From positions 1,178,001 to 1,242,000 of the forward strand of contig NZ_JBBPCL010000001.1 in assembly GCF_038039215.1 (NCBI RefSeq): DNA of 64,000 bases, given 5' to 3'. Shown piece by piece: positions 11,021-39,193 of this stretch (position 1 is the first letter of the stretch; each line of letters opens with the position of its first letter). Made by a program: the position numbers and the translations under genes. The notes beneath the pieces were generated by a model that was not told the DNA's origin, ran no database searches, and was given only the letters and a program-made list of their open reading frames with translations. This DNA is from Pseudonocardia sp. T1-2H. Lineage in GTDB: Bacteria > Actinomycetota > Actinomycetes > Mycobacteriales > Pseudonocardiaceae.

Positions 11021-11057
11021 TGGTACGTCGCCGGGGACTTGAACCCCGAACCCGCTG
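11021..11057 (-). repeat. Attachment-site copy: 37-bp 3' end of tRNA-Lys (island left boundary)
   Basis: The 37 bases are identical, in the same orientation, to 39118-39154, which is the 3' part (CCA, acceptor strand, T-arm and part of the anticodon stem) of the intact tRNA-Lys. Identity stops at both ends. A truncated tRNA 3' end next to an integrase relic is the hallmark of an integrative element's attachment core (attL/attR). Seen directly by comparing the two stretches; the att role is inference from known tRNA-targeting integrases. Confidence 0.88.
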
Positions 11058-11272
11058 GAGGGGAGTCGGGTACTCACTCGCGATCCCCGGAACTCGTTCC
11101 TGCTGGCCAGACGCTCTTCCAGCCGCCTGTCGATCATCAGTGGAGATGCCTATCCGACACAGTGATCGGTTGTAAGCGGTGACCAAAACGGTGACCGGTG
11201 AACCCGGCGGGGGTGGCCTGGTCGACCTGCGGGTCGACCACCCAGTCGCTCGGTCTCGTAGGCTCAGCGGCG

Positions 11273-11869
11273 ATGTCGGCGACGCGCTTGCTGGTACTGG
11301 GGATCGTTCGCGGGTACGGGCGTGCCCACGGCTACCGGATCGGCAACGACCTGCTGTCGTGGGGCGCCGACGAGTGGGCGAACGTGAAGTGGGGCTCGAT
11401 CTACCACGCGTTGCACTCGCTCACGGAGGCCGGCTACCTCCGGGACTTCAACGACATGCCGGGGCGCACCGAGTACGAGCTCACCGAGCGCGGTGAGGCC
11501 GAGTATATGAAGCTGCTGCGCGACGCGCTGCGCCGTCCACAGCCACGTCCCGACGCGTTGGGCGCCGCGCTCGCGATGCTGCCGTCGCTGTCCCGCGACG
11601 AGGCGATCGCGCTGTTGCGGGAGCGCCTCGGGGCGCTGGAGACCGCGCGCGACAAGGCGCGCGCGCAGGTCGACGCGCTGGTGGACCCGCCGCACGTGCG
11701 AGAGCTGTTCGGCATGTGGGAGCACAGCGCGGCGAGTAGCGCCGAGTGGACGCGCGGCGTGATCGAGCGCATCGAGGGCGGCGCGTACCCGATGACGGGC
11801 GAACCGCGCTCGCCGGGCAAGCCCGGCAGCTGGGACGCGTTGAAGTTCCCGCCGTATCCGCCGCGATAG
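11273..11869 (+). CDS. PadR-family transcriptional regulator
   Basis: 198 aa from ATG 11273 (MSATRLLVLGIVRGYGRAHG). The N-terminal winged helix (about 1-85) has the PadR pattern: AHGYRIGNDLL, WANVKWGSIYHALHSLTEAG, YLRDFNDMPGRTEYELTERG. The C-terminal helical domain (about 90-180, SLSRDEAIALLRERLGALET) is the PadR dimerisation domain type. It lies directly upstream of, and in line with, an ABC exporter operon, with a striking inverted repeat between them (11907-11969). By analogy with LmrR/LadR-type PadRs it is likely a drug- or metabolite-responsive repressor of the exporter and perhaps of itself. Confidence 0.88.
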   Translation: MSATRLLVLGIVRGYGRAHGYRIGNDLLSWGADEWANVKWGSIYHALHSLTEAGYLRDFNDMPGRTEYELTERGEAEYMKLLRDALRRPQPRPDALGAALAMLPSLSRDEAIALLRERLGALETARDKARAQVDALVDPPHVRELFGMWEHSAASSAEWTRGVIERIEGGAYPMTGEPRSPGKPGSWDALKFPPYPPR

Positions 11870-11906
11870 TCGGGGGCGCTTGGTAACACCCGTCCGGTTC
11901 GTGGCG

Positions 11907-11969
11907 ACTCAAGTTTGCATACCCCCTTCCCGGTGAGGCATCCTCGTCGGGCAGGGTTCAAACTTGAGT
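11907..11969. promoter_or_regulatory. Inverted-repeat operator upstream of the ABC exporter
   Basis: ACTCAAGTTTG at 11907-11917 is repeated as its exact reverse complement CAAACTTGAGT at 11959-11969. The spacing of 41 bp places the two half-sites about five helical turns apart (centre to centre 52 bp). The right half ends 13 bp before the ATPase start codon. AT-richer than the surroundings, it is the best candidate PadR operator. Confidence 0.65.
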
Positions 11970-11981
11970 ATCGGGAGGGAC

Positions 11982-37470: not shown

Positions 37471-38643
37471 ATGCAAGCAGGGGCGGATCGTGGAGAAGCA
37501 TGGCTCTACGTGGCCGAGACCGTGGTAGCTGCGCCTCCCGACGGCTCCGAGGTCGGGGAGATCATCCGCTGGTACCGGCAGCGCGAGGGGCTGACCCAGC
37601 AGGACGCGGCGGAGCTGCTGAACACGACGCAGTCGCGGCTGTCGAAGCTGGAGAAGGGGTCGCAGGCGCTGCGCGACGTCGTCGAGCTCCGGCACATCGC
37701 GTCAAAGCTTGGGATCCCACCGGAGCGGCTCGGGGTGCTGCCGGACAACTCCCGGGATGCGATGCCCAAGGCGGGCGCGGTCAGCGAGGAGCCAGGGCCT
37801 GTGCGGACGAGCCAGGAGCGGTGGTGCGAGGTTCGACATGAGCTCAACGGCAACCGTGCGCTGCTGGGCGATCTCGCATCTGAGCTGTACCCACAGGAGC
37901 AACGCGTCGCTGGGACGACGGTGCTTGCTGGGCCCGGCTGGGTGCCGGATCAGCCGGTGGACCTCGCCGACGTCGAGATGACCTGGCTGACTGAGTCTCC
38001 GACCCCGATCATCACGGGCAAGGTCGACGAGGCGGCGGCCGTGCGGGCGCTGCGCGCCACCGGCGAGCCCTACGACCGGTACTCGCGCGCGCTGCGCGAT
38101 CTCGCGCGGCCGAAGCTGCTCGACAACAGAACGAGCTACCGGCTGCTCTCCGCTGACTGGTCTGGCGGGCGCGGACGGTTCGGCTTCAACTACACCAGCT
38201 ACTTCGACGTGCTGGACGTCTGCGAGGCCGTCGGGCACGAGTTCGCCGACGCGTGGCAGCAGCGCGGGCGCAAGCGGCCGAGCCCGGCAAGTCTTCCGCT
38301 GCGGCGCCTGATCGAGGATCCCTTCGACCTGGTGGCGCGGCCGATGCTGCCGAGCATAAACACGCTGACGATCCGGCGGGACCCGATCGACGGGCACCGG
38401 ATGTACCTGCATCGGCGCAACGCGGGCGCGGTCGCGGCGGCCGGTGGGATGTTCCACGTCGTCCCAGCGGGCGCGTTCCAGCCTGCTGCGCTCGCGCCGG
38501 CCCACCAGGCCAACGACTTCTCCTTCTGGCTGACGATGGCTCGGATCATGCGGCGGGTGTTGGCGGCGTGTGCCGGCTTCTCCTCGACGGTGCCGTCGCG
38601 ATGCTTGACCAGCTTGCGGGCCTTCTCGAGGTCGACGAAGTAG
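37471..38643 (+). pseudogene. XRE-family regulator, 3' end replaced by integrase relic
   Basis: N-terminal HTH: EVGEIIRWYRQREGLTQQDA then AELLNTTQSRLSKLEKGSQA and VELRHIASKLGIPPERLGVL. A long effector-like domain follows (VDLADVEMTWLTESPTPIIT, YDRYSRALRDLARPKLLDNR, RLLSADWSGGRGRFGFNYTS), the plan of large actinobacterial XRE regulators. Start uncertain (ATG 37471 or 37429). Up to about HQANDFSFWLT (38530) the sequence looks native. From there to the stop at 38643 the frame is the antisense of the integrase relic, so roughly the last 35 residues are foreign. The DNA-binding part is intact, so a shortened protein might still bind. Confidence 0.65.
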
Positions 38644-39018
38644 GAGCCGAGGCGAGCGACGGTGCACTCGATGAGCCGGAGCTCGCCGAGCTTCGGGAGG
38701 ACCTGCTTCTTCAAGCAGTTTGGCGTACGTATCGGCTGTTGAGTCCGCCCGGCGCTCCTGGATCTTGGAGAACCAGACCTCGGCGGCCTCGTTGAAGCGC
38801 GAGTGCTGGCCAAGCGCCATCGCCCGCGGGACGCCGCTGCGCTCGCGGATCGCGTCCTGTATCGCCTTCTGCGCGGCCGCCTTCGTCGGAGCCCAGCGGG
38901 AGAGCTGACGGGTCCTGCCGTCGAGGTCGCGGTACCGGCAGCGGGCCAGCCATCGACCGCCGTCGCGGGTGATCTGAATCTCACCGTGGGAGCCGAGCGC
39001 GAGCGGAGGACGAGCCAT
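38540..39018 (-). pseudogene. Decayed tyrosine integrase, copy 2
   Basis: From ATG 39018: MARPPLALGSHGEIQITRDG then RWLARCRYRDLDGRTRQLSR and AAAQKAIQDAIRERSGVPRA, the AP2-like arm-binding N-terminus of tRNA-targeting actinobacterial integrases. It continues NEAAEVWFSKIQERRADSTA and TYAKLLEE, then shifts frame near 38715 to VLPKLGELRLIECTVARLGS and KARKLVKHRDGTVEEKPAHA, AANTRRMIRAIVS. The catalytic domain (RxxR...HxxR...Y) is missing altogether. The start lies 100 bp from the 3' end of tRNA-Lys, the standard int-att arrangement. Same family as the relic at 10550-10923. Confidence 0.85.
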
Positions 39019-39073
39019 CGCGTACCCCTCCCGGATGGGGTTTTCGTTGAGTTTCCGTTGAGCGGATCTCCGG

Positions 39074-39110
39074 GAAAAGTAACAGGCCAGACCAACACAC
39101 GGTCTGACCT
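39074..39110 (-). terminator. Terminator after tRNA-Lys
   Basis: AGGTCAGACC / GGTCTGGCCT stem (9 of 10 pairs) with a 7-nt loop at 39084-39110, followed on the minus strand by GTTACTTTTCCC, a modest T-run. Position directly after the encoded CCA fits a tRNA terminator. Confidence 0.65.
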
Positions 39111-39117
39111 GCAACTA

Positions 39118-39193
39118 TGGTACGTCGCCGGGGACTTGAACCCCGAACCCGCTGATTAAGAGTCAGCTGCTCTGCCAATTGAGCTAGCGACGC
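39118..39193 (-). tRNA. tRNA-Lys (CUU), CCA encoded; attachment site of the island
   Basis: Read on the minus strand: acceptor GCGTCGC pairs with GCGACGT (one G-U), D-arm GCTCAATTGGCAGAGC, anticodon arm GCTGA-CTCTTAA-TCAGC with anticodon CTT, T-arm CGGGGTTCAAGTCCCCG, discriminator A, then CCA in the DNA. The 37 bp from the CCA inward are repeated at 11021-11057. The gene itself is intact, as expected when an element regenerates the tRNA 3' end on integration. Confidence 0.96.

What the first reader, a model, noticed from the sequence alone, without database searches (positions are those of the whole stretch)
11021..39154. 28-kb catabolic island bounded by direct copies of the tRNA-Lys 3' end
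The 37 bases at 11021-11057 recur exactly and in the same orientation at 39118-39154, inside an intact tRNA-Lys. An integrase relic lies beside each copy. Between them are PadR/ABC-exporter genes and an aromatic-catabolism cluster; beyond 39.4 kb the genes are core-like (orn, HerA-like). This is the signature of a tRNA-targeted integrative element carrying a degradation pathway, now fixed because both integrases are dead.
Basis: partly seen in the sequence, partly recalled or inferred. Interest (0 to 1): 0.85.

Follow-up and report, generated by a model that had tools for sequence, protein, structure and literature searches.

The report
Stacked decayed mobile islands at tRNA-Lys
Next to one tRNA gene of this Pseudonocardia lie the remains of at least two mobile DNA elements that appear to have inserted one after the other and then lost their own moving machinery, and the younger one, still framed by both attachment sites, carries genes for breaking down an aromatic compound.

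Summary
In detail: the 37-bp tRNA-Lys 3' end at 39118-39154 recurs exactly at 11021-11057, nowhere else in the genome, with an integrase relic left of each copy. 11021-39117 is a tRNA-Lys-targeted element, but apparently the younger member of a tandem stack: the left relic is a different branch of the integrase family and belongs to an older element that runs out of the window. Against relatives without an insert (G009, G029), about 45.4 kb is interposed, not 28. In Pseudonocardia kujensis and P. terrae a close integrase heads an intact mobilizable element at the same tRNA (HTH regulator, coupling protein, TrwC relaxase, Prim-Pol; no VirB4 found). The window's right end matches it across one 19.7-kb gap, best read as a deletion that took the transfer genes and most of the integrase. 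The remnant fits a cis-mobilizable element (CIME): both att sites kept, machinery lost. The cargo is a mosaic; some blocks are more alike between species than orn is. Other species hold different cargo at this tRNA, some of it metabolic. A new member of a known kind, comparable to Dehalococcoides ssrA islands.

The parts
39118..39193 (-). intact tRNA-Lys(ctt), the integration target
   Evidence: ARAGORN
39118..39154 (.). tRNA-proximal att core (37 bp = tRNA 3' end)
   Evidence: the G047 alignment stops exactly at 39118
11021..11057 (.). distal att core, exact 37-bp copy
11058..11071 (+). inner terminus of the younger element; together with the last core bases it matches 14 places in 7 of 62 genomes at up to 2 mismatches, reversed control 0
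38529..39018 (-). integrase relic R: codons 1 to about 163 of 410 in two frames, 83-85% to the P. kujensis integrase, then lost
37381..38530 (+). XRE-type HTH gene of the element backbone, 3' part lost (aa 2-389 of 522)
38530..38532 (.). junction of two points that lie 19.67 kb apart in P. kujensis; read as a deletion scar
39078..39116 (-). stem-loop directly 3' of the tRNA, terminator-like, -27.5 kcal/mol for 60 nt, z -5.0
10984..11019 (-). stem-loop on the integrase side of the distal att core, -34.4 kcal/mol for 60 nt, z -7.0
10512..10923 (-). integrase relic L: pieces of codons 1-57, 114-159 and 214-244 in different frames, nearer the G011/G027/G053 type in most pieces
11271..14234 (+). 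module A: PadR regulator, ABC exporter, F420H2-dependent quinone reductase-like; 96% DNA identity to G043 at 5.11 Mb (its tRNA-Lys locus is at 8.32 Mb)
14586..37053 (.). module B: aromatic catabolism (LLM oxidoreductases, esterase, flavin hydroxylase, MFS transporters, LysR, MhpB-type dioxygenase, hydrolase, ALDHs, 3-HCDH, CoA ligase, MaoC, thioesterase)
20574..29096 (.). stretch inside module B missing from the G012 version (LLM, SDR, ALDH, IS4 remnant, second MFS, FMO)
24534..25183 (+). broken IS4-family transposase pieces
30169..31125 (+). 3-carboxyethylcatechol 2,3-dioxygenase (MhpB) family, above one NCBIfam cut-off
31152..31989 (+). MhpC-like hydrolase, one-base frameshift against relatives
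1..11020 (.). older element, the part inside the window: transport genes (ABC), frdABC, ANTAR and methyltransferase blocks; it starts left of the window
39446..40060 (-). orn, conserved flank (with tRNA-His 39290-39363)

Best explanation
The region is a tandem stack of decayed integrative elements at the 3' end of tRNA-Lys(ctt). Seen in the sequence: each att core has an integrase remnant on its left that starts about 100 bp from the core, and the DNA between the two cores ends, on the tRNA side, in the backbone of a P. kujensis/P. terrae-type element. Inferred: an element with the other integrase branch came first; its remnant is the tract left of 11021, with its far att lost. The second element crossed over at the 37-bp core, restored the tRNA 3' end, supplied a hairpin after the tRNA, and displaced the first element leftwards; it is 11021-39117. 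Later one deletion (38530/38532) removed, if its content was like that of P. kujensis, 19.7 kb with the coupling protein, relaxase, Prim-Pol, DUF3987 protein and most of the integrase. What remains is a CIME: two matching att cores around 26 kb of cargo and a regulator stub. The cargo probably ran a meta-cleavage pathway for a 3-substituted catechol; its hydrolase now has a frameshift, but a mhpBC-like pair lies elsewhere in the genome.
For: Two exact att copies only. Relic R is 83-85% identical to the G020 integrase and 52-57% to the G011/G027/G053 type, relic L is closer to the latter in most pieces; the DNA between integrase and core of relic R matches G020 and G059 (92-94%), that of relic L matches G046 and L163 instead (83%). 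The integrase family sits beside tRNA-Lys in 13 of 17 named loci; 3 more have a copy of a tRNA-Lys 3' end there without the tRNA (read by eye), and 1 has tRNA-Leu. Intact elements at the same tRNA in G020 and G059, and the window matches G020 on both sides of one 19.67-kb gap at 95.5% and 82%. Insert-free arrangement in G009 and G029. G047 collinear up to -1681 and again from exactly 39118. Same layout with other cargo in G024; termini in line on the tRNA contig in G016 (three) and G059 (two). Blocks at 94-96% to G020 and G043 where orn is 82-85%.
Against: No left att was found for the older element. In one of relic L's pieces G059 is as close (78%) as the G011 type (77%). The far ends of the intact elements in G020 and G059 were not found within 39 kb of the tRNA; the nearest termini are on another contig (G020) or about 74 kb away (G059). 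None of the 38 relatives examined joins 11.0 kb to 39.2 kb. Module B against G012 is 80-86%, about as alike as orn (80%), so transfer is not shown by that comparison. The frd block is 97% to G047, as the core is, so there it looks inherited and moved. One gene (orn) is a thin yardstick. Modules A and B could have been recombined into the element in place.
Confidence: 0.86

Rival explanations
1. One 28-kb integrative element entered in a single event and the left integrase relic is its own second integrase.
For: The att copies frame exactly this stretch and both relics belong to one broad family.
Against: The relics are of different branches, the left one lies outside the att pair, and the DNA left of it is also absent from this site in the relatives examined.
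Confidence: 0.07
2. The frame is an old element but the catabolic modules were brought in afterwards by insertion sequences or homologous recombination, not by the integrase.
For: Cargo blocks match different genomes with sharp edges (11271-14234 to G043; 14586-16851 and 34648-37053 to G020 contig 74; 16483-20573 and 29097-37020 to G012), each on another contig or locus than the tRNA-Lys; IS4 remnants lie inside.
Against: Att-framed cargo of similar size stands at the same tRNA in several species, and one cassette lies beside the same termini in two.
Confidence: 0.3
3. A prophage remnant.
For: A tyrosine integrase at a tRNA 3' end is also typical of phages (general knowledge).
Against: The intact relatives carry TrwC relaxase, coupling protein and Prim-Pol; no phage gene appeared among the eight backbone proteins scanned with Pfam.
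Confidence: 0.02

Closest known systems
Dehalococcoides ssrA genomic islands (PMC3146451; passages read)
   Same: Tandem islands bounded by copies of an RNA gene's 3' end, many without integration genes, carrying catabolic genes; the authors suggest CIMEs and accretion.
   Different: Serine recombinase and tmRNA there; tyrosine integrase and tRNA-Lys here; the intact relatives here encode a TrwC relaxase and a coupling protein.
CIMEs and IMEs as reviewed in PMC5704250 (passages read)
   Same: A CIME has lost integration and transfer genes but kept attL and attR; a later element integrates at the target gene and accretes.
   Different: In 2017 the review knew no canonical IME with a MobF relaxase, and named MobC for the IMEs with their own VirD4 coupling protein; the intact Pseudonocardia relatives combine a TrwC (MobF) relaxase with a coupling protein.
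Actinobacterial AICEs and T4SS-type ICEs (PMC3218068; passages and section 9 read)
   Same: Two AICEs in tandem in a tRNA-Lys gene of Frankia sp. EAN1pec; Prim-Pol replication proteins; 17 putative ICEs with TrwC relaxase and coupling protein.
   Different: AICEs use an FtsK/SpoIIIE-type Tra protein and the T4SS-type ICEs were required to have VirB4; neither was found in the Pseudonocardia elements, and the window copy has lost the transfer genes altogether.
ICEclc (search listing only; otherwise recalled)
   Same: Catabolic integrative element at a tRNA gene.
   Different: Intact, self-transmissible, proteobacterial.

Membership tests
CIME (cis-mobilizable element) | retains both att sites | tested here: met
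   exact 37-bp copies
CIME (cis-mobilizable element) | has lost integration and transfer genes | tested here: met
   integrase truncated; tblastn with 11 backbone proteins over 264 kb of G000 found only the two integrase relics and the XRE gene
CIME (cis-mobilizable element) | can be moved by another element's integrase | not testable with these tools
   needs an excision assay
IME (intact relatives in G020, G059, G053, G027) | integrase, own relaxase, no mating-pore genes | tested here: met
   integrase, TrwC and coupling protein; all PF12846 (VirB4-type) hits in these four genomes lie elsewhere; other pore genes not tested
ICE / AICE | transfer apparatus (VirB4 or FtsK-type Tra) in the window element | tested here: not met
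   no such Pfam match among 30 ORFs of 11.2-39.1 kb; the one PF12846 hit of G000 is at 6.34 Mb
Prophage | phage structural genes | tested here: inconclusive
   none among the 30 ORFs given to Pfam; PHROGs not run
3-carboxyethylcatechol 2,3-dioxygenase (MhpB) | NCBIfam NF009910 above its cut-off | tested here: met
   444 bits against 291; below the cut-offs of NF009908, NF009907 and NF009909

The most novel reading that the evidence does not exclude
tRNA-Lys in Pseudonocardia works as a shared docking and exchange site for cargo cassettes, many of them catabolic: machinery-free att-bounded cassettes are excised, carried and re-inserted in trans by the few intact MobF-type mobilizable elements with the same att core, somewhat like a slow integron.
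Probability: 0.3. Interest if true: 0.65.

Novelty: new member of a known kind. Interest (0 to 1): 0.45.

Why it matters
It corrects a one-island reading to a stack of elements, shows by a traced junction how an intact mobilizable element can become a silent catabolic island, and points to one tRNA gene where species of this genus gather variable cargo. If cassettes there move in trans, pathway exchange in these soil bacteria could be tested at one defined site.

Tried and rejected
Left att of the older element: no copy by 14-base seeds or by local alignment left of 11021. GC contrast: weak. Junction of 11.0 to 39.2 kb: not seen. tRNAs near the G012 copy of the cluster: none in its 40 kb. Integrase or backbone remnants in the G016 and G048 arrays: none; in the outer G059 stretches one weak match (29%, E 0.007). 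Hairpin at every att: of nine att copies or ends folded, three have none to speak of (G016 at 21906 and 33253, G048 at 9719); of 38 relatives' tRNA ends, 6 have z above -3, among them G030, which has the integrase. So it is common, not universal. Literature: searches listed no paper on tRNA-Lys islands of Pseudonocardia, judged from titles and abstract beginnings; the library is open-access only.

Rows dropped: of 61 relatives in the genus set, left flanks of 38 were analysed. Stretches of eight more (G014, G045, G007, G036, G002, G055, G042, G023) were fetched but not counted; the rest had short contigs, were a near-duplicate (G015), or were not chosen. The stretch seen left of the tRNA ranged from about 2.6 to 39 kb, so counts of att copies are lower bounds. 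For genomes with more than one tRNA-Lys call, searches used the outermost one. Lists were cut by the tool. The scan used two short peptide patterns, so integrases without them were not seen.

Changed in the second check: branch rather than subfamily for the relics, with the one piece against it; two small backbone genes are not called HTH; DUF3987 is not called a helicase; confidence lowered from 0.88 to 0.86 for the undefined far ends of the intact elements.
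Full report
OBSERVATION. The 37-bp repeat is exact, in direct orientation, at 11021-11057 and 39118-39154; shuffles give none, and the whole genome has no third copy at up to 3 mismatches. The right copy is the 3' end of an intact tRNA-Lys(ctt). Composition is nearly flat.

INTEGRASE RELICS. Pieces of both relics align to complete integrases found at the same tRNA in relatives. Relic R (38529-39018) is 80-85% identical to those of G020 and G059 and 51-57% to the G011, G027 and G053 ones, has one frame change, and stops near codon 163 of 410. 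Relic L (10512-10923) matches G011, G027 and G053 at 48-77% by piece and lacks codons between about 57 and 114; against G020 and G059 its pieces give 52-78%, so one piece does not separate the types. The short stretch between integrase start and core backs the split: that of relic R matches G020 and G059 (92-94%), that of relic L matches loci of G046 (L180) and a Pseudonocardia MAG (L163) at 83% over 126 bp. Two branches in the same position relative to two cores argue for two arrivals rather than one. Of three complete relatives scanned, two match Pfam Phage_integrase; the third (G030) matched only the central domain.

GENUS AND SITE. Loci of this integrase family in named genomes are Pseudonocardia, Actinomycetospora and unnamed Pseudonocardiales or Pseudonocardiaceae MAGs (17 loci). 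Equal contig lengths tie G020 to P. kujensis, G059 to P. terrae, G053 to MAG OFTM178 and G024 to P. oceani. Of the 17 loci, 13 have tRNA-Lys(ctt) just before the integrase, 1 tRNA-Leu and 3 no tRNA; those 3 show a tRNA-Lys-like 3' end at that place by eye. In the genus set the tRNA-Lys/tRNA-His/orn probe matched 62 of 62 genomes, three of them (G039, G051, G056) only by short tRNA-like matches. I took the tRNA's 3' side from 38 of 61 relatives. None had the window's 11-39 kb genes in order there. Nine of the 38 (G011, G020, G024, G027, G028, G030, G034, G053, G059) have this integrase family, whole or broken, at the tRNA. Att copies of at least 32/37 bases occur in five of 38 by seed search (G018, G024, G025, G038, G053); G016 adds two that the seeds missed.

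EXTENT. G009 and G029 keep one conserved gene 91-112 bp from the tRNA. Its counterpart in G000 ends near window -6.3 kb, so about 45.4 kb is interposed here. The closest relative with data, G047 (97% at orn), follows G000 up to -1681 and again from exactly 39118; between these G000 has 40.8 kb and G047 20.9 kb, with no DNA match except the tRNA end. The stretch -6.3 to -1.7 kb is shared with G047. Blocks of the window's first 10 kb occur in relatives at other, separate places.

ANCESTOR AND SCAR. G020 and G059 carry, reading towards the tRNA: an XRE-type regulator, two small genes without assignment, a TraG/TraD-type coupling protein (scanned in G059, 94% in G020), two more small genes, a TrwC relaxase (1413 aa in G020), Prim-Pol, DUF3987, cargo, and the integrase. 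G027 and G053 have the relaxase and coupling protein at 47-57% identity; G053 also has att copies 21.7 and 23.1 kb out. VirB4-type PF12846 hits in these four genomes lie elsewhere. Window 37213-38530 equals G020 66185-67502 (95.5%), and window 38532-40084 equals G020 87172-88697 (81.7%). The simplest reading is one 19.67-kb deletion in the window's lineage. The inner flank of the distal core is shared with G025 and G016; with the end of the core it finds 14 places in 7 of 62 genomes and none with the reversed control. Not all of these are tied to tRNA-Lys: those of G020 and G048, and one each in G015 and G016, lie on contigs other than the tRNA's. G015 and G016 are near-duplicates. The far ends of the intact G020 and G059 elements were not found within 39 kb.

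CARGO. Module A (11271-14234) is 96% identical to G043 at another locus; orn between the two is 82%. Parts of module B are 94% identical to G020 contig 74, where 14586-16851 is joined directly to 34648-37053 (orn 85%). G012 has 16483-20573 joined to 29097-37020 at 80-86%, about as alike as orn (80%), so that comparison does not show transfer. A PRK06126-type flavin hydroxylase and an MhpB-type dioxygenase pass an NCBIfam cut-off; the other eight proteins of that call did not, and are named at Pfam level only. The hydrolase has a one-base frameshift against relatives. The substrate is inferred, not shown.

SAME SITE ELSEWHERE. G024 has the window's layout: an integrase with a frame break at the tRNA, 32.1 kb of other genes, an att copy and a second integrase relic beyond it. 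Its cargo was judged only from ORF beginnings (molybdenum-hydroxylase-like, glycine-cleavage-like; recalled resemblance). G016 has three termini in line (contig positions 12933, 21906, 33253; tRNA at about 55.1 kb) and G059 two (21140, 48545; tRNA at about 122.4 kb). The 8.4 kb between two G016 termini is 88% identical to DNA in G048 that has a terminus on its right and, on its left, a stretch 85% identical over 53 bp to the window's integrase-side flank; the orn regions of the two genomes are 82.6% identical. The G048 contig is not linked to its tRNA. Of ten G048 genes there, all have Pfam matches: mostly enzymes, with one transporter and one regulator. The G059 cargo includes long genes that are not metabolic (see noticed).

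HAIRPIN. The transcript just past the tRNA folds into a strong stem-loop in the window (z -5.0), and so does the integrase side of the distal core (z -7.0). Insert-free G009 and G029 have unrelated hairpins there (z -4.2, -6.1); 32 of 38 relatives have z of -3 or lower. Eight of the nine relatives with this integrase at the tRNA share a similar stem; G030 does not (by eye). I infer that incoming elements tend to bring a replacement terminator; three of nine att copies or ends lack it. The shuffles were mononucleotide, 60 each.

JUDGEMENT. It works as a stack of tRNA-Lys elements and meets the two testable parts of the CIME definition; mobility was not tested. G000 has TrwC relaxases elsewhere (contig 3, and 1.576 Mb of contig 1), so a helper is possible but unproven.

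Noticed in passing
L035 (G020), L036/L118 (G059), L051 (G053), L047/L119 (G027): Intact mobilizable elements at tRNA-Lys with TrwC relaxase, coupling protein and, in G020 and G059, Prim-Pol, no VirB4 found; the IME review read knew no canonical IME with a MobF relaxase in 2017.
   Followed up: partly
G059 C63:70239-86598 (L195, L118): Two very long genes (2478 and 2979 aa) as island cargo; from the first residues recall suggests a toxin-complex-like pair. Not searched.
   Followed up: no
G059 C63:114398-121005 (L036): Two genes that look like a type I restriction system near the integrase in P. terrae (recalled resemblance from ORF beginnings).
   Followed up: no
window 2509-6595: The frd block is 97% identical to G047 but sits there on another contig with different neighbours; patchy in the genus (11 of 62 genomes at E<=1e-100, own included).
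   Followed up: partly
G000:C1 about 4.2295-4.2320 Mb (L116): A second mhpB/mhpC-like pair, 61% identical in MhpB, with an unbroken hydrolase frame.
   Followed up: partly
L157 (Actinomycetospora endophytica): One integrase of the family sits beside tRNA-Leu(caa) instead of tRNA-Lys.
   Followed up: no
G020 C74 near 5114 (L194): The joint between window 16851 and 34648 in P. kujensis lies in a short sequence shared by both sides (by eye).
   Followed up: partly
G032, G031, G008, G005, G026, G040 (L054, L055, L060, L061, L064, L065): Two tRNA-Lys(ctt) genes side by side at this locus in six of 38 relatives.
   Followed up: no
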